This document shows, piece after piece, positions 8,786 to 29,264 of a stretch of 35,258 bases of DNA. Where the stretch lies: the IMG/VR virus record IMGVR_UViG_3300047169_000106, positions 1 to 35,258 of that record. One strand, 5' to 3'. This DNA comes from a virus. The translations under genes and the position numbers were made by a program. The notes beneath the pieces are model-generated. The model ran no database searches, was not told where the DNA came from, and saw only the letters and a program-made list of their open reading frames with translations. Within the stretch, counting starts at the first letter, position 1; the number at the start of each line of letters is the position of its first letter.

Positions 8786-8937
8786 GGAGGCAAGTAAGCA
8801 AGCAGTCCCTTTTTTGAAAAAAAGGGACCCAAAAAACTTTTCTCCGTTCAGGCCCGGCGCGGATGCAGTCGGGGGCCAAATGGACAAAAGTTTTTTTGGT
8901 TCTTTTTTTTCAAAAAAAGAACGGCTTACTTGCTTTT
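8786..8937. repeat. Palindromic A/T-hairpin intergenic element (copy A1)
   Basis: This element fills the gap between the gp48-like gene and the Gly-rich fibre. The left arm is AAGCAGTCCC-T6-G-A7-GGGACCC-A6-CTTTT; the right arm is the inverse type with GGTTC-T8-C-A7-GAAC. The left hairpin clamp is GTCCC/GGGAC while the right one is GGTTC/GAAC, so each arm keeps its own pairing despite changed bases. The core is short and GC-rich, unlike most other copies. Confidence 0.85.
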
Positions 8938-13066: not shown

Positions 13067-13221
13067 AAAGGAAGAAAGCGGTTCTTTTTTGAAAAAAAAG
13101 AACCAAAAAAACTTTTCTCACCTTGGGTCCGTCGGGTGGCGACGTGCGTGCCGATGCGTTGACGCGCGCAAATGGACAAAAGTTTTTTTGGTTCTTTTTT
13201 TTCAAAAAAAGAACTGCTTGC
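13067..13221. repeat. Palindromic A/T-hairpin intergenic element (copy A2)
   Basis: The left arm is GGTTC-T6-G-A8-GAACC-A7-CTTTT and the right arm is the inverse ending GAACTGCTTGCTTA. The core contains GTCGGGTGGCGACGTGCGTGCC...GCGTTGAC, the plus-orientation form of the family core. It abuts the TAA stop of the 13222-13833 gene. Confidence 0.9.
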
Positions 13222-13833
13222 TTACCCTCTATCCGCCGCCGAATTCGCAGCCGCGCGTTGCGCGTAGCCGCGGGCGATGGCTTGTTGGGCGAGGCTGCCG
13301 GTGGTGTCGCGGGTGGTGAGCAGGCCCGGGGCGGTGGTCGGGTCGGCGGTGGCCAGTGTGGTGCTGGCGATGCCGAGGTTGAGGCTGGCGAGGTCGAGGC
13401 CGGGGGCGATGTCGTCGGCGGTGCCGAGGTCGCCGGCGATGCTGGTGGCGAGCGAGACGGCGTCTTCCAGCAGGCCTTCGGCTTCGTCGCGCAGCACGGT
13501 GCAGGCGATGCGGTAGGGAATCCAGTTGGCGCGTTCGAAGGAGGCTTCGAAGCGGGAGACGACGACCGAGTAGAAGAACGTGTCCCACGCCAGGGGCAGG
13601 ATGGTGCCTTCGGCGCGCATCAGGTCCATCAGCCGGGCGCGGAGCGCGCCGTCGTCGCCGGTGAAGATGCCGTTCCAGGCGATTTCGCGGTCGTCGCGGC
13701 CCATGCTGTCCAGCACGCGGCGGCCGCCGGGCAGGCGGTGGATGGCGACGCGTTGGGCGCCGCCCCATTGGATGGATTGCGGCAGTTCGAAGCCTTGCAG
13801 CAGCAGGGGGCCGACGAGGAGGTAGTTGCTCAT
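13222..13833 (-). CDS. DNA-circularisation-N-like tail protein (Mu gp43/N position)
   Basis: 203 aa from ATG at 13833, overlapping the preceding stop as ATGA; the frame upstream of this is shadow. The N-terminal 110 residues (VAIHRLPGGRRVLDSMGRDDREIAWNG, then GDDGALRARLMDLMRAEGTILPLAWDTFFYSVVVSRFEASFERANWIPYRIACTV) follow the pattern of the DNA_circ_N domain: a Gly-Arg motif, a D-rich turn, strand-forming segments and FxxxxE. The rest is Ala/Thr-rich. In Mu this protein lies between the tape measure and the baseplate genes, the same position as here. The name of the family is historical; the role is in tail or baseplate assembly. Confidence 0.65.
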   Translation of the reverse strand: MSNYLLVGPLLLQGFELPQSIQWGGAQRVAIHRLPGGRRVLDSMGRDDREIAWNGIFTGDDGALRARLMDLMRAEGTILPLAWDTFFYSVVVSRFEASFERANWIPYRIACTVLRDEAEGLLEDAVSLATSIAGDLGTADDIAPGLDLASLNLGIASTTLATADPTTAPGLLTTRDTTGSLAQQAIARGYAQRAAANSAADRG

Positions 13834-14663
13834 CGTGCGGCCTCGCCTTGCAGTGTGCCGGGCCAGGTGGCGCCGGCGCGGGGGTCGAAGAAGGTGGTGG
13901 AGGTTTGCGGCATGTCGGCCTGCCGCCCGAGCTCGCGCGCCAGCCAGCGGCCGACGCGCATGCCGTCCAGGATCACGTCGCCGCCGATGGGGGTGGGGGC
14001 GGGCGCTGCGTCGGTCTGCTGGTCGCTGGCGGAGGTTGGCAGGGTGCGCTCGGGTGGTTGCGCGCGTGGGGCTGTCGGGATCGGCGCGACGGGGGCGGCC
14101 GGCGGCGCGGCACTGGCGAAGGACGGCCATGCCGGCGGCGCCGGTGCTGCGGCGGGCGGCGAGGGTTCCGCGGGGGCGGTCTGGGGCGTATCGGCCCAGC
14201 CGGGCAGGGACATCGGCCCCGGCGCGCGCGGCAGCTGGATCGGTTCGGCCGGCTGGGGCGCCGGGGTGGGGGCGAAGTGCGCGTAGTCCACCGGCTTGCG
14301 CTGAGCCGCGGCGGAGACCGGCGCGAAGGCAAGGCGCGTCACCGGCGCCGGCGCGGGGGCGGTCTCGCGGATGGTGCGCACCGTCTCGCTCGCCTTGGCC
14401 TCGCGCGGCAGCGGCGCTGCGGCACGCGGCAGAGGCGCCTCGCCCACCGCGCGCGGCGGCGGCAGAGGCGCGTCCGGCGCCGGCACGCTCGCCGGCGCCA
14501 CGGCAACCGGCTTGTCCGCCGCCTTGGGCTGCGGCACATGCGCCACGCGCGCCGCCATCCCGGCATCGAACGCGCCAAGCTGGCGTTCCAGCTTGGCGAG
14601 CGCGGGCGTCACCGCGTCATCCAGCACCAGGCGCACGCCGACGGCATAGGCTTCGTCCATCAC
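13830..14663 (-). CDS. Pro/Ala-rich protein in the tape-measure position
   Basis: 277 aa, ATG at 14663 (a second ATG follows at once); the start overlaps the stop of the upstream small gene. The first 35 residues (VRLVLDDAVTPALAKLERQLGAFDAGMAARV) resemble the opening helix of tape-measure proteins. The middle 170 residues are low-complexity Pro/Ala with no long hydrophobic or coiled-coil segment. The end (GGDVILDGMRVGRWLARELGRQADMP...FFDPRAGATWPG) looks folded. It is the only candidate tape measure, since the surrounding order is chaperones, this gene, DNA-circularisation-like protein. If so it is unusually short. It could instead be a tail cap or scaffold protein. Confidence 0.5.
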   Translation of the reverse strand: MMDEAYAVGVRLVLDDAVTPALAKLERQLGAFDAGMAARVAHVPQPKAADKPVAVAPASVPAPDAPLPPPRAVGEAPLPRAAAPLPREAKASETVRTIRETAPAPAPVTRLAFAPVSAAAQRKPVDYAHFAPTPAPQPAEPIQLPRAPGPMSLPGWADTPQTAPAEPSPPAAAPAPPAWPSFASAAPPAAPVAPIPTAPRAQPPERTLPTSASDQQTDAAPAPTPIGGDVILDGMRVGRWLARELGRQADMPQTSTTFFDPRAGATWPGTLQGEAAR

Positions 14664-14911
14664 CGCTCTCCCAGATGTTGCGCCAGATGCTCCGCCACGT
14701 CCCGCGCCGCCTGGGCCGCCGCCGGCGCCAGCACCGGGCGCGGCGCGCGCCCGGGCGTGCCGAACTCGGCCGCATGCCGCTCGCCGCCCCAGACGACGAC
14801 GATGCCCGCGTCGTCCGTGCGCACCGCGCCGCCAAGCGCCGCCGCCCGCGCGTGCAAAGCCGCCTCGGCCACGCCGCGCAGCGCCGCCAGCCGCCTTATC
14901 GTGCGATCCAT
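14660..14911 (-). CDS. Small tail-module protein, unknown
   Basis: 83 aa from ATG at 14911 (MDRTIRRLAALRGVAEAAL). The start lies inside the end of the frameshifted chaperone extension, and the stop overlaps the next start as ATGA. The sequence is helical, with a DDAGIVVVWGGERHAAEFGTPGRAPRPVL strand-turn centre and a helical C-terminus (AARDVAEHLAQHLGER). The central ERHAAEFGTP phrase is reminiscent of small virion completion proteins, but no family is assigned. Its tight coupling suggests a virion or assembly role. Confidence 0.65.
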   Translation of the reverse strand: MDRTIRRLAALRGVAEAALHARAAALGGAVRTDDAGIVVVWGGERHAAEFGTPGRAPRPVLAPAAAQAARDVAEHLAQHLGER

Positions 14912-15371
14912 TGCATGCTCTCCCAGTCGAATTGCTCGCCCTTCAGCGTGCCGATCGCGACAATCATCGCCAGGCGCATCGCCGGCGACAGGCTGAACGC
15001 CACATCGAACGGCACCCCGTTCATCACCAGATACAAAGGATCCAGCAGATCGGGGTGCCCGCTCAGTTTCCCGCGACGGCCCGCGTCGTCGCCGCATCCG
15101 GCTCCGCCGCCACCGCGCCGGCCACCGCGGCAATCCCGGCATCGCCCAGCCGCCGGATCACGCCCTCGATCGCCGCCTTGCTGTTGGGCACCGGAATCGG
15201 CACGTCGTCGATCGCCGTCACACTGGCGGCCAACGCCGCCATGCCCAGCCAACGGTCGTTGCGCGACAGCTCCGGCCCCGCCGCCTCGAACAGCCGCAGC
15301 TTGTCCAAGGCATTCAACCGCCGCAGCGCAATCCGCCGCCCGTCGGCATCCACCACCGCGCTCTCCGACAT
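14896..15371 (-). CDS. Tail assembly chaperone, frameshifted long form (gpGT-like)
   Basis: This is the joined product of the 0 frame 15371-15066 and the -1 frame 15066-14896. After a -1 slip on GGGAAAC the ribosome avoids the adjacent TGA and adds 56 residues beginning LSGHPDLLDPLYLVMNGVPF and ending QFDWESMQWIAR, giving 158 aa. The extension has no start codon or ribosome site of its own, which is what a programmed extension should look like. In lambda (G/GT), P2 (E/E') and Mu (gp41 pair) the long form recruits the tape-measure protein during tail assembly. Frameshifting efficiency cannot be read from sequence. Confidence 0.85.
15063..15371 (-). CDS. Tail assembly chaperone, short form (gpG-like)
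   Basis: 102 aa from ATG at 15371, sharing one base with the tail tube stop (TGATG). Helical acidic protein: RRIALRRLNALDKLRLFEAAG, RWLGMAALAASVTAIDDVPIPVPNSKAAIEGVIRRLGDAGIAAV. The DxxxxPxPxxKxxIE phrase recurs in phage tail chaperones. The stop codon TGA directly follows a slippery heptamer. The short form coats the tape measure in excess over the long form in better-known phages; the same is inferred here. Confidence 0.88.
   Translation of the reverse strand: MSESAVVDADGRRIALRRLNALDKLRLFEAAGPELSRNDRWLGMAALAASVTAIDDVPIPVPNSKAAIEGVIRRLGDAGIAAVAGAVAAEPDAATTRAVAGN
15066..15072 (-). promoter_or_regulatory. Programmed -1 ribosomal frameshift site, G GGA AAC
   Basis: On the minus strand the end of the short chaperone reads GC-G GGA AAC TGA. 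GGGAAAC is a canonical X XXY YYZ heptamer in the correct phase, with the 0-frame stop as the next codon. The -1 frame is open for 56 codons past this point. Confidence 0.9.
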
Positions 15372-15799
15372 CAGACGCGCCGCCGCGCCGCGGCAAAGAA
15401 CTCCAGCCGCTGCTTCACTGGCGCATCGCCCCGCCAATGCCCCGCCTGGCTCAGCCGGAACACCACACCGTCATACTGATACGTGCTGGTCGACCCATCG
15501 GTCTCCGACACGTACTGATACAGCGTGCCAGTGCCCGCCTGCGTGCCGGCATGGAACGCCGCCTCCATGCGCGCGATGAAATCATCCACCGCGGAAGAGC
15601 CGCGCTCCAACTCGAACGCCCCCTCCCAGCCCTTCGGCAACTCGGCCGCCAACTGCGTGCCGTCGATGCGATCCACCCGCACCGCCGCCGGCATCTGCCG
15701 ACTCTCGAAGCCGGTGACATGCGACAAATCAATCCGCCCATAGGGGCCCATGACGACCAGCTGGCAATCGCGGCCGACGGAGAACGTGTTCACTGACAT
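15371..15799 (-). CDS. Tail tube protein
   Basis: 142 aa from ATG at 15799 (MSVNTFSVGRDCQLVVMG). It lies between the sheath gene and the chaperone pair, the position of the tube gene in all Mu/P2-type phages. Strand-rich sequence: GPYGRIDLSHVTGFESRQ, RVDRIDGTQLAAELPKGWEGAFELERGSSAVDDFIARMEAAF and TGTLYQYVSETDGSTSTYQYDGVVFRLSQAGHW. The G(W)xGxFELER...D..IA..E phrase is typical of phage tail tube proteins of this size. It polymerises into the inner tube. Upstream in-frame codons are repeat-derived. Confidence 0.85.
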   Translation of the reverse strand: MSVNTFSVGRDCQLVVMGPYGRIDLSHVTGFESRQMPAAVRVDRIDGTQLAAELPKGWEGAFELERGSSAVDDFIARMEAAFHAGTQAGTGTLYQYVSETDGSTSTYQYDGVVFRLSQAGHWRGDAPVKQRLEFFAAARRRV

Positions 15800-15821
15800 T
15801 GAGTGATTTCCTCGGTTTTCA

Positions 15822-15964
15822 GAAAGGAAGGTAAGAAAGGCCAAGGGGCTTCGCCCCCTGGACCCCCACCAGGGGCCGAGCCCCTGGACCTCAAAATATT
15901 CAGGTGCAGGGGCTGGGCCCCTGCTAGGGGGTCCAGGGGGACAAAGTCCCCCGGCCTTGCTTCC
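15822..15964. repeat. Palindromic intergenic element, GC family (copy B3)
   Basis: Separates sheath from tube and starts at the TAA stop of the sheath gene. It has four hairpins in series: CCAAGGGGCTTCGCCCCCTGG-like, CCAGGGGCCGAGCCCCTGG, CAGGGGCTGGGCCCCTG and GGGGGACAAAGTCCCCC. The outer ends GGAAGGTAAGAAAGGCC and GGCCTTGCTTCC are inverse to each other. Confidence 0.82.
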
Positions 15965-17536
15965 TTAAGCCGCCAAAGCCCCAGCCGTATTCGGCAAGGT
16001 CTGGCGCTGCACTTGCACGGTTTGGCCGCCTTCCAGGTTGACGATGAATTTCTCCACGATCGCCTGGTATTGGATTTGCGCGTCGGCCTGGACGTAGCCG
16101 AGGCCGGTGCGGCTGAGCGGGTTGTTCGAGGTGTCGCAGATCACGTTGAACGGCAGTGTGCCGTCGGTGCTGCCCAGCAGGCCTTGGCCGAGCATGTTCT
16201 GCAGGAAGCTCATCAGCGTGGCGCGGATGCGGCGGAACAGGTTGGCGTTGACCACCTGGCCGACATACTGGCCCATCCCGGCCGACAGCGAGGCGGCGAT
16301 GAAGTTGGTGAGCCGCGTGTAGTTGTCGCCGTTGGTGCCGGAGTTGGTCGACGAGTTGTGCCCGCCGCGCACGCCCCAGAAGCTGCCGGCGGGTTGCGGG
16401 TTGGCGATCACGTCGATGCCCGCGGCGAGCAGGGCGGCGAGTTCGGCCGAGGAATAGGTGGTGGTGCCGCCGGCGCCGGGCATGCCGGATTTCTGGCTGC
16501 CGATCACGCCGTAGAGCGGCTTGTTCAGGCTGGACTGTTCCGGCGAGAGGTTGGCCAGGCGCCCGGCCACGAAGCCCTGCGGCGAGACCACGCGCTGCGT
16601 CATGTTGGTCTGGTCGTTCCACCAGATCCAGTCGCCGAACATCAGCTTGCAGGCGTAGGAGTCCAGCCCGTAGTTCTGCTTGGTGTTCACCGCGTTGCCG
16701 ATGTTGTCGCCGGCCGGGCCCGCCAGGATCATGTAGACGCCTTCGGCCAGGCCGAACTGCGCCTGCGCGGTCCAGTAGGACGGGTCGTCCTGGTCGGACA
16801 GCACGCCGATCGAGCAGCCGAGGCCGCGCAGCGCATACATGCCCGAGCGCGGCGGCACGTCCTGGCCCACCAGCCAGCCGCCGTTGACGTTGGTGACCCC
16901 GTCGGTGCCGCTGACGCCGCCGGAGAACGTCCAGGCGAAGGCGCTGGGGGTCGCCGAGGTGCCGCCGGTGGTGGCGACCACCAGCTGGCTCGGCCCGCGC
17001 TGCGCGCCCTGCCCCTTGTTCACCGCGTCCGCCAGCGCCTGCCAGAACGCCGCCCCGGTGCCGCCGACATTGTCGAACACTTCCGGCCGCTGGCCCGGCA
17101 GGGTCACGGTCAGGCGCCAGCAGCCGGCCTTGCCCGCCGGCGTCAGCGCCACCGCGATGCTGTTGCCCAGCGAGCCGGTGTAGAGCGCGGTGAACACGAA
17201 GGATGTGTTCGGGATCTGGAAGGCGGCCGCCGTGTCCGTCCCGTCGGTGACGCGCACGCAGCGGAAATTGGCCGCGCCCTGCTGCACGGCGGTGGCCACC
17301 TGGGTGCCCATGTCGAACTTGCGGGCCATGACCGGGCCGAAATTCGCCGCGTAATCCGCCATCGTCGCCACGATGGTCGGCTGGCCCACCGGGCCCCAGC
17401 TGGCGGTGCCGACCATGCCGACCACATTGGTCGGCACGCCGTTCAGCACCAGATTCTGCGGCGGCACGATCTGCACATACAGATCGGGAACCACCAGCGC
17501 GGTCGTGTTGATCGCGCCCTGCTGTACAACCGGCAT
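15965..17536 (-). CDS. Contractile tail sheath protein
   Basis: 523 aa from ATG at 17536, with GGGGAGC about eight bases upstream inside the end of the preceding small gene. The N-terminus (YVQIVPPQNLVLNGVPTNVVGMVGTASWGPVGQPTIV) is the classic sheath opening, in which V(G)xxGxAxxGP is followed by a docking strand. Then come VRVTDGTDTAA, SLGNSIAV, SPQGFVAGRLAN, and the C-terminal domain with ANPQPAGSFWGVRGGHNSS, RLTNFIAASL, RRIRATLMSFLQNML, GLGYVQADAQIQYQAIVEKFIVNLEGGQTV. It defines this phage as a myovirus or a contractile injection particle. Length is normal. Confidence 0.95.
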   Translation of the reverse strand: MPVVQQGAINTTALVVPDLYVQIVPPQNLVLNGVPTNVVGMVGTASWGPVGQPTIVATMADYAANFGPVMARKFDMGTQVATAVQQGAANFRCVRVTDGTDTAAAFQIPNTSFVFTALYTGSLGNSIAVALTPAGKAGCWRLTVTLPGQRPEVFDNVGGTGAAFWQALADAVNKGQGAQRGPSQLVVATTGGTSATPSAFAWTFSGGVSGTDGVTNVNGGWLVGQDVPPRSGMYALRGLGCSIGVLSDQDDPSYWTAQAQFGLAEGVYMILAGPAGDNIGNAVNTKQNYGLDSYACKLMFGDWIWWNDQTNMTQRVVSPQGFVAGRLANLSPEQSSLNKPLYGVIGSQKSGMPGAGGTTTYSSAELAALLAAGIDVIANPQPAGSFWGVRGGHNSSTNSGTNGDNYTRLTNFIAASLSAGMGQYVGQVVNANLFRRIRATLMSFLQNMLGQGLLGSTDGTLPFNVICDTSNNPLSRTGLGYVQADAQIQYQAIVEKFIVNLEGGQTVQVQRQTLPNTAGALAA

Positions 17537-18547: not shown

Positions 18548-18570
18548 TTCGGGGGCGCCTCCTGGAAAGT

Positions 18571-18753
18571 GAAGCAAGCAGTTCTTTTTTTGAAAAAAAG
18601 AACCAAAAAAACTTATCTCCATTTGCAAGCGTCAACGCCGGAGCACGCACATCGCCACCCGACGGGCCCAAGCGGGTAAAAGTTTTTTTGGTTCTTTTTC
18701 CCTGCGCGGCGCCTTCGCCGTCGCACTATTCAAAAAAAGAACTGCTTGCTGAC
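18571..18753. repeat. Palindromic A/T-hairpin intergenic element with nested hairpin (copy A3)
   Basis: The left arm is AAGCAGTTC-T7-G-A7-GAACC-A7-C. The core is in the reverse orientation compared with A2 (GTCAACGCCGGAGCACGCAC...CGCCACCCGACGGG). The right arm is interrupted in its hairpin loop by about 30 bases containing GCGCGGCGCCTTCGCCGTCGC, itself a GC hairpin. It ends at the TAA stop of the 18754-19437 gene. Confidence 0.9.
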
Positions 18754-19837: not shown

Positions 19838-19979
19838 GGCAAGGCAAGCAAGCAGTCCCTTTTTGAAAAAAGGGACCCAAAAACTTTTGTCCACTGGAGC
19901 GCGCGTTGCATCCAGCGCGCGCCAAATGGACAAAAGTTTTTTTGGTTCTTTTTTTTCAAAAAAAGGACTGCTTCCTTCC
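19838..19979. repeat. Palindromic A/T-hairpin intergenic element (copy A4)
   Basis: The left arm is AAGCAGTCCC-T5-G-A6-GGGACCC-A5-CTTTTGTCC; the right arm is GGACAAAAG-T7-GGTTC-T8-C-A7-GGACTGCTTCCTTCC. The core is short and itself palindromic (GCGCGCGTTGCATCCAGCGCGCG). It adjoins the TAA stop of the capsid gene. Confidence 0.9.
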
Positions 19980-21299
19980 TTAACCAATGTGCTCGATCAT
20001 CACCGCGCGCTTGTAGGCGGCGTTGGTGGCCGTGCCGACGGTGGCGGAGGTGGTGGTGGTGTCGCTCGGGGCGACGAAGCCGCCGATCCAGTACCAGCTT
20101 TGCGCGATGATCTGCTGCAGCCGGTCGATCGGCTCGCGGGTCACCATGGCGACGCCGTCCACGATGGAGATGATGCTGTCGCCCGGCCCGGTGTCGGAGG
20201 CCGCCATGCCGGCGTAGTCGCCCTCGATCAGCGCGCCTTTGCCGCAGATGATCGGGCGGCGGACATATTGGCCGTTGCCGAGCGGCTGAACGATGGCCTC
20301 GGTGGTCGGGATGAAGCGCAGGCCGAGGAAGTCGTTGACCATGCCGCGCTGGAACACCTGGTTGGCGCTGGTCGCCCCCTGGAACAGCTGGCGGAAGTCG
20401 TTGTCGGCGAACAGCTGGCGGGCGGAGACGGGGTCGAGGTAGCAGTTGAACGCGCCGTCGATTTCCGGCACCGCGTTCTGCCGCAGCGTGGCCACGCCGT
20501 TCAGCAGGGTCGCCATGGTCAGCGTGTCGCCGGTCGCCAGCTGGCTGGTGTTGGCGCGCGCATTCGGCCGGACGATGGTGCTGGCGGTCAGCGCCGTCAC
20601 CGTGTTGCCGGCCGCGCCGTCGGCGGTGCTGACGGCGGTGGAGAAGGTCAGCGTGCCCGAGAGTCCGCCAAGCGCCTGGACGCTGGAGGTGCTGGGGGCA
20701 TCCACCGACACGCCGATCAGCGTGTAGGTGGTCGAGCCGACCTGGACCGGCAGGGTCGCCGAGCCGACCGCCTGCTGCACGCCGTTGACGAAGACGTTCT
20801 GGAAGCCGCGCACGTCATCCACCGCAACCGTCGTGGAGGGCGCCGTCAGCGCCGCCTTGACGCGGGTGTTGCCGCCGAAATACGCCGCATACAGCGCGTT
20901 GCGCGCCAGCTCGTCCAGGCTGCGCGCGGCCTGCTCGCCGTTGATATAGGCGTTCTGCACGAACTGGTTGGCGATGCCGACGCGCGACGTCACCATGTTG
21001 AGATCGGTGGTCGCCGCGTAGTGGTTGATGCTGAGCGTGTACTGCTCGACATTGAAGTTCGTCGAAACCAGCCCGTTGTCCAGGTTGGTGTTGGTCGACG
21101 GCGATGTCGGCGAGGTCACCGCCGGCTTCAAGCCGACGCGCGTCTTGGTGACGGTCTCACCGACGCCGATCGCCACCTCAACGCGATCCGCCACCGCACG
21201 GAACCCCAAACGGCTGGTCAGCGCCTGCTGGAACTCGCGCTCCAGAAAACCCTGCTGGATGATCGGCTGCAACGCGGCCGGAAAATTCGAAATAGGCAT
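19980..21299 (-). CDS. Major capsid protein
   Basis: 439 aa from ATG at 21299, preceded by GAGGACGC. It lies directly downstream of the scaffold gene, as coat genes do. The N-terminus (FPAALQPIIQQGFLEREFQQALTSRLGFRAVADRVEVAIGVGETVTKTRVG) resembles the N-arm of P22-coat/N4-gp56-like coat proteins. Later blocks: SRVGIANQFVQNAYINGEQAARSLDELARNALYAAYFGG, ATLLNGVATLRQNAVPEIDGAFNCYLDP, ARQLFADNDFRQLFQG, FLGLRFIPTTEAIVQPL, IICGKGALIEGDYAGM. The residues about 175-260 insert (SSTVQALGG-type, Thr/Ser-rich) looks like an extra surface domain. It stands alone between elements A4 and A5, which would allow its dosage to be set separately. Confidence 0.85.
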   Translation of the reverse strand: MPISNFPAALQPIIQQGFLEREFQQALTSRLGFRAVADRVEVAIGVGETVTKTRVGLKPAVTSPTSPSTNTNLDNGLVSTNFNVEQYTLSINHYAATTDLNMVTSRVGIANQFVQNAYINGEQAARSLDELARNALYAAYFGGNTRVKAALTAPSTTVAVDDVRGFQNVFVNGVQQAVGSATLPVQVGSTTYTLIGVSVDAPSTSSVQALGGLSGTLTFSTAVSTADGAAGNTVTALTASTIVRPNARANTSQLATGDTLTMATLLNGVATLRQNAVPEIDGAFNCYLDPVSARQLFADNDFRQLFQGATSANQVFQRGMVNDFLGLRFIPTTEAIVQPLGNGQYVRRPIICGKGALIEGDYAGMAASDTGPGDSIISIVDGVAMVTREPIDRLQQIIAQSWYWIGGFVAPSDTTTTSATVGTATNAAYKRAVMIEHIG

Positions 21300-21373: not shown

Positions 21374-21593
21374 GTCGAAGGAAGAAAGACTCTTCTTTTT
21401 TGAAGCTTACCTGCCGATCATCTTTATCGGATCAAGCGAAGTGGCTTGATCCGTTGATGACCGGGAGAAGCAAAAAACTTTTATCCCCTTGGACCCGTCG
21501 GGTGGCGACGTGGATGCCTCGGCGTTGAAACCCGGGAGGGACAAAAGTTTTTTTGGTTCTTTTTTTCAAAAAAAGAACTGCTTGCTTCCTTCC
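21374..21593. repeat. Palindromic A/T-hairpin element with hairpin inserted in one arm (copy A5)
   Basis: The right arm is the standard form ending GAACTGCTTGCTTCCTTCC, next to the scaffold stop. The left arm starts CTTC-T6-GAAG and is then interrupted by about 70 bases including CGGATCAAGC-GAAGTG-GCTTGATCCG, a perfect 10-bp stem, before rejoining CAAAAAACTTTT. The core is in A2 orientation (CCCGTCGGGTGGCGACGTGGATGCC...GCGTTGAA). Confidence 0.85.
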
Positions 21594-23400: not shown

Positions 23401-23423
23401 TGCTGTCTCCGTCTAGGGGTTTG

Positions 23424-23574
23424 AGAAAGAAGTTCTTTTTTTGAAAAAAAAGAACCAAAAAAACTTTTGTCCGTTTACTTGTGTCAACGCGGAAGCACGG
23501 CCGTCGCCACCCGACGGGTGCGAGGGGAGAGAAGTTTTTTTGGTTCTTTTTTTTCAAAAAAAGAACTGCTTGCC
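23424..23574. repeat. Palindromic A/T-hairpin intergenic element (copy A6)
   Basis: The left arm is AAGTTC-T7-G-A8-GAACC-A7-CTTTTGTCC and the right arm is GAAG-T7-GGTTC-T8-C-A7-GAACTGCTTGCC. The core GTGTCAACGCGGAAGCACGGCCGTCGCCACCCGACGGG has the A3/A7 orientation. It adjoins the TAA stop of the DUF2335 gene. Confidence 0.9.
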
Positions 23575-24000
23575 TTACTTGCTTTCAGACCCGCTACCCG
23601 ACGCCAGCCAGGCGCGGCCTTTGATGAAGGCGGTGACCATGCTGGCGGCGCCGGCTGCGAGGAAGCCGCCGGCGACGGCTTCGTGGCCTGCCATGGCAGC
23701 GTAGTAGGCGCCGATCAGCATGCCGATCGCCACGGCAAAGCCCAGCACCTGGCCGGCGATGGCGTAGGCGAAATCGAGCAGGAGCGACGTGCGATCCAGC
23801 CGGTGGCGATGGCGTTGTTCGGTTTCGCTCATCCGCAGGATGCGTTCGGCGGCGCCGGGGAGGATGGCGTCGTAGCGGCTGAGGTGGTCGGGGTGCGGCA
23901 GCGGGCCGCTATAGGCTTCTTCGCGGACGACGCTGAGCGTCGTCCTTTTCATCGGTTCCGGCGCGGGGTCCGGGTTGTCCGGCAGGTTACCTGCCGACAT
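23575..24000 (-). CDS. DUF2335 predicted membrane protein
   Basis: 141 aa from ATG at 24000, overlapping the upstream gene by 14 bases; an internal ATG at 23952 (MKRTTLSVV) has a better-placed GGAA and could be the real start. The sequence SGPLPHPDHLSRYDAILPGAAERILRMSETEQRHRHRLD is the DUF2335 signature. It is followed by two transmembrane helices (residues about 74-96 and 105-125). DUF2335 proteins occur widely in prophages and bacterial genomes; no biochemical role is established. Here, just after the terminase and before the portal, it might act at the inner membrane during infection or lysis. Confidence 0.85.
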   Translation of the reverse strand: MSAGNLPDNPDPAPEPMKRTTLSVVREEAYSGPLPHPDHLSRYDAILPGAAERILRMSETEQRHRHRLDRTSLLLDFAYAIAGQVLGFAVAIGMLIGAYYAAMAGHEAVAGGFLAAGAASMVTAFIKGRAWLASGSGSESK

Positions 24001-27001: not shown

Positions 27002-27160
27002 GGAAGGCAGCAAGCAGTTCTTTTTTTGAAAAAAAAGAACCAAAAAAACTTTTGTCCCTTCGCGATGACAACGCTGAGGTCCCCCAGTAGCCACCCGACG
27101 GGACCAAGGTGAGAAAAGTTTTTTTGGTTCTTTTTTTTCAAAAAAAGAACTGCTTCCTCC
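27002..27160. repeat. Palindromic A/T-hairpin intergenic element, best copy (A7)
   Basis: Begins at the TAA stop of the RlpA-like gene (TAAGGAAGGCAGCAAGCAG). Arms 27012-27053 and 27114-27155 are exact reverse complements over 42 bp, each with its own hairpin (GTTC-T7-G-A8-GAAC). The 60-bp spacer contains GACAACGCTGAGG and CCACCCGACGGGACCAAGGTG. It is the reference copy for the family. Confidence 0.95.
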
Positions 27161-27202
27161 CCTAGCCTTCCACCCGCCCCCCCGATCCTGTATCCCCCCG
27201 CC

Positions 27203-29066: not shown

Positions 29067-29264
29067 GTGGAAGGAAGGCAAGCAGTTCTTTTTTTGAAAA
29101 AAAAGAACCAAAAAAACTTTTTCCACCTTGGTCCCGTCGGGTTTCAATCTGCGAGCCCCAGCGTTGACACAGGGGGGAGAAAAAGTTTTTTTGCTTCTTT
29201 TTCACTGCGCGGCGCCTTCGCCGGCGCACTTTCACAAAAAGAAGATTCTTGCCTTCCTTTCGCT
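29067..29264. repeat. Palindromic A/T-hairpin element with nested hairpin (copy A8)
   Basis: Follows the methyltransferase stop after about 18 bases. The left arm is AAGCAGTTC-T7-G-A8-GAACC-A7-C. The core has A2 orientation (GTCCCGTCGGGTT...CAGCGTTGACAC). The right-arm hairpin loop carries TGCGCGGCGCCTTCGCCGGCGCA, a GC hairpin close to the one in A3. Confidence 0.9.

What the first reader, a model, noticed from the sequence alone, without database searches (positions are those of the whole stretch)
14896..15371. Canonical -1 frameshift in the tail chaperone gene, with the stop directly after the slip site
G GGA AAC in correct phase, followed at once by TGA, then a 56-codon -1 extension without its own start. 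It is a textbook G/GT arrangement, so the gene should be annotated as two products. The zero distance between heptamer and stop is a tidy natural test of stop-codon effects on slippage.
Basis: partly seen in the sequence, partly recalled or inferred. Interest (0 to 1): 0.55.

Follow-up and report, generated by a model that had tools for sequence, protein, structure and literature searches.

The report
Phage tail gene with programmed frameshift
A phage tail-assembly gene very probably makes a short and a long protein because some ribosomes slip back one base at a set spot; the mechanism is well known, but here a stop signal sits right behind the slip spot and relatives keep it there or a few codons on.

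Summary
The 102-aa frame (15371-15063) ends GCG GGA AAC TGA; the -1 frame runs 56 codons past the heptamer to TAA at 14896. The heptamer alone is no rarer than chance in the window (4 copies, 4.3 expected). The case rests on relatives: in 182 of 182 sequences holding both parts the second is in the -1 frame, and 181 have an in-phase X XXY YYZ just before the stop (158 GGGAAAC, 22 AAAAAAC, 1 AAAAAAA). The fold best resembles HK97's tail chaperone, weakly. The adjacent stop looks selected: 105 of 107 Leu-Ser pairs after the slip spell a stop, against 9 of 132 elsewhere. It is absent in 32 of 142; 30 of these stop six codons on, two one codon on. The mechanism is known, and GGGAAAC directly before TGA was already described in phage KL1. 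What is added is a natural series for testing the codon after a bacterial slip site.

The parts
15063..15371 (-). 0-frame gene (G): 102 aa, ATG start overlapping the upstream gene's TGA (TGATG), TGA stop at 15065-15063
   Evidence: phrog_20383 (function unknown) E 1.9e-18; AlphaFold2 pLDDT 90.2; HK97 tail assembly chaperone (2ob9) is the top Foldseek PDB row but E is only 0.4; VIA-align Z 5.5 (3klu, YqbN) and 5.1 (2ob9)
15066..15072 (-). slippery heptamer G GGA AAC (-1: GGG AAA C)
   Evidence: in-phase X XXY YYZ in 181 of 182 sequences
15063..15065 (-). TGA stop codon of the 0 frame, immediately after the heptamer
   Evidence: adjacent stop in 110 of 142 non-redundant sequences (window included)
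14896..15069 (-). -1 frame extension (T): AAA codon plus 56 codons, then TAA at 14898-14896
   Evidence: in the -1 frame in 182 of 182 sequences holding both parts; model pLDDT 92.2
15051..15059 (-). 5' arm of the conserved downstream stem (GGCACCCCG), positions 14-22 counted from the heptamer's first base; spacer of 6 nt (TGAGCG in the window)
15011..15019 (-). 3' arm of the stem (CGGGGTGCC), positions 54-62; loop of 31 nt
15371..15844 (-). upstream gene, probable tail tube (by position between sheath and chaperone)
   Evidence: phrog_12993, function unknown, E 2.4e-39; role inferred
15965..17536 (-). tail sheath gene
   Evidence: phrog_23 tail sheath E 8.9e-45; 50.1% identical to the phiKX1/phiKX2 sheath
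14663..14911 (-). next gene, 83 aa, overlaps the end of T by 16 nt
   Evidence: no PHROG or NCBIfam hit better than E 0.019; none in Pfam
13830..14663 (-). 277-aa Pro/Ala-rich gene in the tape-measure position; tape measure not demonstrated
   Evidence: no Pfam, PHROG or NCBIfam hit

Best explanation
The region is a programmed -1 ribosomal frameshift in a G/GT tail assembly chaperone gene of a contractile-tailed phage, whose host is probably an acetic acid bacterium or relative (inferred from the hosts of its relatives). Most ribosomes read GGA AAC and stop at the adjacent TGA, giving the 102-aa G protein. A minority, held up by a stem-loop that begins 6 nt past the heptamer, slip from GGA AAC to GGG AAA and continue 56 codons, giving a GT protein of about 158 aa with AG(N or K)LSGHPD at the junction. 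By analogy with lambda, G is expected to bind the tape measure and T to recruit tail-tube subunits. Shown here: sequence layout, frame relation, conservation of slip site and stem, and conserved early termination of the 0 frame. Inferred: that slippage occurs, its efficiency, tandem P/A-site slippage, and the assembly role. The adjacent stop looks selected, most simply because the 0 frame must end at once or within six codons; a second, unproven role is to hold frameshifting low by letting release factor compete when the stop reaches the A site.
For: Frame and heptamer: 182 of 182 and 181 of 182 sequences. The 142 non-redundant sequences with a heptamer have XXX = GGG in 119 and AAA in 23, with at least 7 switches on the tree. 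Stem: 98.9% of 1233 cells paired; in the folded optimum of positions 11-66 at least 6 of 8 core pairs form in 142 of 142; window z -2.45 and -2.85. Codon choice: of 67 conserved columns the five most biased are Gly GGG (140/141 rows with Gly), Pro CCC or CCT (140/141), slip Lys AAA (142/142), Val GTG (142/142) and Arg CGG/AGG (122/122), whose last two bases open the stem; the sixth scores 0.37 bits against 1.01-1.59. No T-frame start in 59 of 142. phiKX2, the row with the longest branch, has the same layout with AAAAAAC TGA. Stop: 105 of 107 Leu-Ser pairs spell a stop against 9 of 132 elsewhere; a stop six codons on is present in 32 of 32 sequences without the adjacent stop and in 47 of 110 with it. 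Fold: YqbN and the HK97 chaperone lead the VIA-align list, and proteins named chaperone, Mu FS-gp41 too, recur in the viral list.
Against: No expression data. Stem covariation is not significant (51-58 of 500 shuffles reach the observed values); the stem case rests on synonymous-codon choice. A_AAA_AAC is a much weaker slip site in E. coli than A_AAA_AAG (PMC5009743, passage), so efficiency may be low. The SD-like stretch upstream is modest in the family and weak in the window (-2.6 kcal/mol). Foldseek's best PDB match is not significant (E 0.4). No curated chaperone family hits the window protein; Phage_TAC_15 hits 1 of 43 relatives at E 0.036. 83 of 142 sequences do have some T-frame start codon. 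The tape measure is not identified.
Confidence: 0.93

Rival explanations
1. T is a separate protein made by termination-reinitiation or its own start codon after G, and the heptamer is incidental.
For: The window has GTG-ATG in the T frame inside T, and a TTG upstream at 15396; 83 of 142 sequences have some T-frame start codon in the stretch examined. phiKX2 T is annotated as a separate gene.
Against: 59 of 142 sequences have no ATG/GTG/TTG in the T frame from the upstream stop to just before GVPF. The downstream start codons present lie at differing places inside T. AAA is used in 142 of 142 although AAG would also encode Lys.
Confidence: 0.04
2. Transcriptional slippage at the A run, not ribosomal slippage, makes the long product.
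For: AAAAAAC occurs in 22 of 182 sequences and AAAAAAA in 1.
Against: 158 of 182 have GGGAAAC, which has no long single-base run (that polymerase slippage needs one is recalled). The downstream stem and codon bias fit ribosomal frameshifting.
Confidence: 0.02
3. About the stop (given the frameshift): it acts as a governor. When slippage is late, with the codon after the heptamer already in the A site, release factor competes with slippage and lowers the GT share.
For: In HIV-1 constructs a stop after the slip site cut apparent frameshifting by about 70%, UGG gave the most (12%) and UGA the least (3.5%), and in a bacterial system raised RF2 abolished it, there without the stem-loop (PMC4373837, section 13 and passages). 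Here a stop is favoured at this codon, TAG stops appear in clades that mostly lack the adjacent stop (L080, L085, L106), and no sequence has UGG there although CTG makes up 42.6% of CTN codons before G elsewhere (0 of 29 Leu-Ala/Leu-Val pairs). The SD-like stretch is weaker on average without the adjacent stop (-3.76 against -4.48 kcal/mol, difference not tested).
Against: 30 of 142 sequences do with a stop six codons on. TGA:TAA (97:10) roughly follows Leu codon usage (CTG:CTA about 13:1), so there is no sign of a preference for RF2. A 6-nt spacer suits slippage before the stop enters the A site (recalled). The independent-pairs test on the tree is uninformative (5 pairs, median p 0.5). Stems of the six-codon class are slightly stronger, not weaker (-30.1 against -28.2 kcal/mol, p 0.0095, rows not independent). 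The HIV authors advise caution because the truncated reporter differs in length.
Confidence: 0.25
4. About the stop (given the frameshift): it has no effect on slippage; it is kept only so that the 0-frame protein ends promptly.
For: Early termination at 0, 1 or 6 codons in 142 of 142. The adjacent stop is missing only where the six-codon backup exists (0 of 63 sequences without the backup lack it).
Against: Does not explain why no UGG occurs after the slip site, nor the TAG stops in clades that mostly lack an adjacent stop, two of which (L085, L106) also carry the backup.
Confidence: 0.55

Closest known systems
Lambda gpG/gpGT tail assembly chaperone frameshift (heptamer GGGAAAG recalled, not looked up)
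   Same: -1 slippage, short chaperone plus longer fusion (role as described in PMC5009743, passages)
   Different: Here the heptamer ends in AAC, the stop is directly adjacent, a 9-bp stem is strongly conserved, and the phage has a contractile tail
Burkholderia phage KL1 gp18/gp19
   Same: GGGAAAC immediately upstream of TGA in the tail chaperone gene (PMC3483164, passages; sequence)
   Different: A siphophage; our fold of its downstream sequence is no better than shuffles (z -0.27), although its authors report that a stem-loop could form there; homology to the window was not tested
Caulobacter phages phiCbK (AAAAAAC) and Colossus (GGGAAAC); archaeal viruses HCTV-1 (G_GGA_AAC) and HCTV-2 (A_AAA_AAC)
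   Same: Same two heptamers in tape-measure chaperone genes or g-t expression (PMC3556154, passages; PMC5009743, passage)
   Different: Distance to the stop and downstream structure not checked here
HK97 tail assembly chaperone (2ob9) and YqbN (3klu; its being a prophage tail chaperone is recalled)
   Same: Similar overall fold of the G model: Z 5.1, 86 aligned, rmsd 3.6; Z 5.5, 84 aligned, rmsd 3.5
   Different: 15% and 11% identity; below the level that proves kinship
Eukaryotic viral -1 sites with an adjacent stop (Rous sarcoma virus, barley yellow dwarf virus)
   Same: Stop codon right after the heptamer (stated in PMC4373837, passages)
   Different: Eukaryotic ribosomes and different stimulators; no relation

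Membership tests
Programmed -1 frameshift site | X XXY YYZ heptamer in 0-frame phase, in the overlap | tested here: met
   181 of 182 sequences with both parts; window
Programmed -1 frameshift site | Downstream stimulatory structure at suitable spacing | tested here: met
   9-bp stem, spacer 6 nt; at least 6 of 8 core pairs in the optimum fold of 142 of 142; codon-bias support; covariation not significant; that it stimulates is not tested
Programmed -1 frameshift site | Upstream Shine-Dalgarno-like stimulator (often present in bacteria, recalled) | tested here: inconclusive
   Family mean -4.34 against -3.49 (sd 0.19) in synonymous resampling, region chosen after seeing the profile; the window's own -2.6 kcal/mol
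Programmed -1 frameshift site | Both products and their ratio demonstrated | not testable with these tools
   No expression data
G/GT tail assembly chaperone | Gene after tube and before tape measure, extension in another frame | tested here: inconclusive
   Follows the sheath and a presumed tube gene; -1 extension in 182 of 182; tape measure not identified by the libraries tried
G/GT tail assembly chaperone | Chaperone fold of the G part | tested here: inconclusive
   HK97 chaperone is Foldseek's top PDB row at E 0.4; Z 5.5 and 5.1 for 3klu and 2ob9, then 4.5 and 2.8 for the next rows
G/GT tail assembly chaperone | Binding to tape measure (G) and tube protein (T) | not testable with these tools
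   Needs biochemistry

The most novel reading that the evidence does not exclude
In this phage family the codon after the slip site is itself a selected regulatory element: a stop or another particular codon there, never UGG, lets release factor or tRNA compete with slippage and sets the G:GT ratio, so tail assembly senses release-factor level.
Probability: 0.2. Interest if true: 0.6.

Novelty: new member of a known kind. Interest (0 to 1): 0.36.

Why it matters
It corrects annotation: phiKX2's two parts are annotated as two hypothetical proteins, and the 0-frame part falls in a PHROG of unknown function. The family also offers a natural series of one frameshift element with the same slip site and stem but TGA, TAA, TAG, TCG, TTG and other codons after the slip. 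That suits the question whether slippage happens before or after that codon reaches the A site in bacteria.

Tried and rejected
Covariation as proof of the stem: rejected, because the arms are almost invariant; replaced by a codon-choice test against other conserved columns. An inner helix in the loop: only two weaker extra pairs in the consensus. An SD-like stimulator: kept as a family-level hint only. Independent-pairs test of adjacent stop against six-codon stop: too few pairs to decide. Sequence searches of solved structures with G and T profiles gave no credible relative (best E 0.0029, to a designed protein, over 29 profile positions); the T fold search in the viral library gave no match at E 0.001 or better, and T was not searched against PDB folds. 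Pfam and NCBIfam found nothing for the window protein. L073 is the one sequence without a heptamer; it was dropped from the counts made on 142, which required a heptamer with XXX and YYY alike, so 'no mixed triplet' there is by construction. L103 and L147 lack one of the two parts and were dropped. L108 was too short for the 75-column alignment, which therefore has 141 rows. The count of T-frame starts stops at the end of the DNA held where no upstream stop was reached.

Limits of sampling: two scans kept 80 of 112 and 80 of 153 relatives; the first kept 24 of 24, and many of its contigs came back and were merged. The patterns included a junction string taken from my joined proteins. Nearly half of the tree's inner branches are weakly supported (64 of 139 open). 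Literature: nine searches; the library lacks most subscription papers.

Full report
What is there. On the minus strand a 102-codon frame runs from ATG at 15371 to TGA at 15065-15063; its last two sense codons with the base before them read G GGA AAC (15072-15066). The -1 frame continues for 56 codons after the heptamer's AAA to TAA at 14898-14896. The window is an IMG/VR virus record of 35,258 bases. Upstream lie a presumed tube gene of unknown annotation and a tail sheath gene (phrog_23, E 8.9e-45). The bare heptamer is as frequent as chance predicts (4 against 4.26), so the window alone proves nothing.

Relatives. Three scans listed 24, 80 and 80 loci, with overlaps (the last two cut from 112 and 153); phage phiKX2 was added. 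Of 184 sequences examined, 182 hold both parts. T is in the -1 frame in 182 of 182; an in-phase X XXY YYZ lies just before the 0-frame stop in 181 of 182: 158 GGGAAAC, 22 AAAAAAC, 1 AAAAAAA, none in L073. After removing duplicates and clustering at 95% identity, 142 sequences with a heptamer remain, window included: 119 with GGG and 23 with AAA as first triplet, interchanging at least seven times on the tree.

The stem. Positions 14-22 and 54-62 counted from the heptamer's first base form a 9-bp stem with a 31-nt loop; RNAalifold's own consensus gives 8 of these pairs plus two weaker inner ones. 98.9% of cells pair, against 34.6-49.5% when one side is slid by 1-3 columns, but covariation is not significant because the arms hardly vary. 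The codon test is clearer. Among 67 conserved columns of the whole gene, median bias 0.08 bits, the top five (1.01-1.59 bits) are Gly GGG 140/141, Pro CCC/CCT 140/141, slip Lys AAA 142/142, Val GTG 142/142 and Arg CGG/AGG 122/122 (rows that have the residue); the sixth has 0.37. One is the slip codon; the other four lie in the stem, the Arg codon with its last two bases. Folding positions 11-66 gives at least 6 of 8 core pairs in 142 of 142. phiKX2, the row with the longest branch, keeps AAAAAAC TGA and the same stem.

No separate start. In 59 of 142 sequences the T frame has no ATG, GTG or TTG from its upstream stop (or the end of the DNA held) to just before GVPF. The remaining 83 have at least one such codon, the window among them.

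The stop. The 0 frame ends directly after the heptamer in 110 of 142 (TGA 97, TAA 10, TAG 3), one codon on in 2 and six codons on in 30, never later. At the junction 105 of 107 Leu-Ser pairs spell CTR-AGY and so a stop; other Leu-Ser pairs in the same genes do so in 9 of 132, and codon usage predicts 17%. A stop six codons on is present in all 32 sequences lacking the adjacent stop, and in 47 of 110 that have it (Fisher p 2.5e-10, rows not independent). The tree needs at least 10 changes between the two states; an independent-pairs test had too few pairs to say more. The three TAG stops sit in clades otherwise mostly using the six-codon stop, which suggests regain; the root is not inferred, so direction is not proven. 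In sequences with Leu-Ala or Leu-Val at the junction CTG is never used (0 of 29; 42.6% elsewhere before G), so UGG never follows the slip.

What the stop may do. For HIV-1 a stop at this codon lowered apparent frameshifting, with UGG highest and UGA lowest of the codons named, and raised RF2 abolished it in a bacterial construct that lacked the stem-loop (PMC4373837, abstract, section 13 and passages). That makes a governor role plausible. The interchange with a six-codon stop makes simple early termination the safer reading. TGA and TAA shares roughly follow Leu codon usage, so there is no sign of a special preference for RF2. Stems of the six-codon class are slightly more stable and SD-like stretches slightly weaker, which points no clear way.

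Protein identity. The G model (pLDDT 90.2) has HK97's tail assembly chaperone as top Foldseek PDB row at E 0.4; YqbN and HK97 lead VIA-align at Z 5.5 and 5.1, with the next rows at 4.5 and 2.8. In the viral library several proteins named tail assembly chaperone, and Mu FS-gp41, are in the first 50 rows, though only one protein, named just 'Phage protein', reaches E 0.001. The T model (pLDDT 92.2) has no significant match. Sequence families are silent or weak.

Known or new. G/GT frameshifts are long known. The same heptamer-TGA arrangement was reported for KL1 (PMC3483164, passages; sequence checked), and the same heptamers in Caulobacter phages (PMC3556154, passages). Two published sets average 26 and 36 nt to the stop (PMC10885494, passages). 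The paper on phiKX1/phiKX2 does not contain the word frameshift in its main text (PMC8566455, term search). In my nine searches I saw no description of this family's stem or of its conserved stop positions; of the papers listed I looked into six, and subscription papers are mostly not held. Verdict: a sound, ordinary mechanism in a little-described phage family, with an unusually clean natural series for testing the codon after the slip.

Noticed in passing
window 8792-8935, 13067-13227, 18567-18749, 19842-19981, 21526-21591, 23419-23579, 27004-27163, 29072-29252: An A/T-run repeat (AAAAGTTTTTTTGGTTCTTTTTTTTCAAAAAAAGAACTGCTTGC and its reverse), 13 copies listed in two families in the two orientations (D4 and D6); position relative to genes not checked. 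A 23-nt core is in none of the 185 loci held then (exact match).
   Followed up: partly
L073 5200-5320: The only one of 182 sequences without an X XXY YYZ heptamer; T is still in the -1 frame and part of the 5' stem arm is changed. Variant site, decay or assembly error not decided.
   Followed up: partly
L101, L105 (NZ_CP042425.1): Two copies of the G/T module in the complete chromosome of Limnoglobus roseus (recalled as a planctomycete), with AAAAAAC and no adjacent stop: the module reaches beyond Proteobacteria.
   Followed up: no
L026 5980-6521 (phiKX2): G and T annotated as two separate hypothetical proteins although they share the frameshift layout.
   Followed up: yes
positions 7-12 after the heptamer's first base, 142 non-redundant sequences: Leu CTG is never used before Ala or Val at the junction, so UGG never follows the slip site (0 of 29).
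   Followed up: partly
window 13830-14911: The tape-measure position holds only an 83-aa and a 277-aa gene without significant family hits; either a very short tape measure or a divergent one.
   Followed up: no
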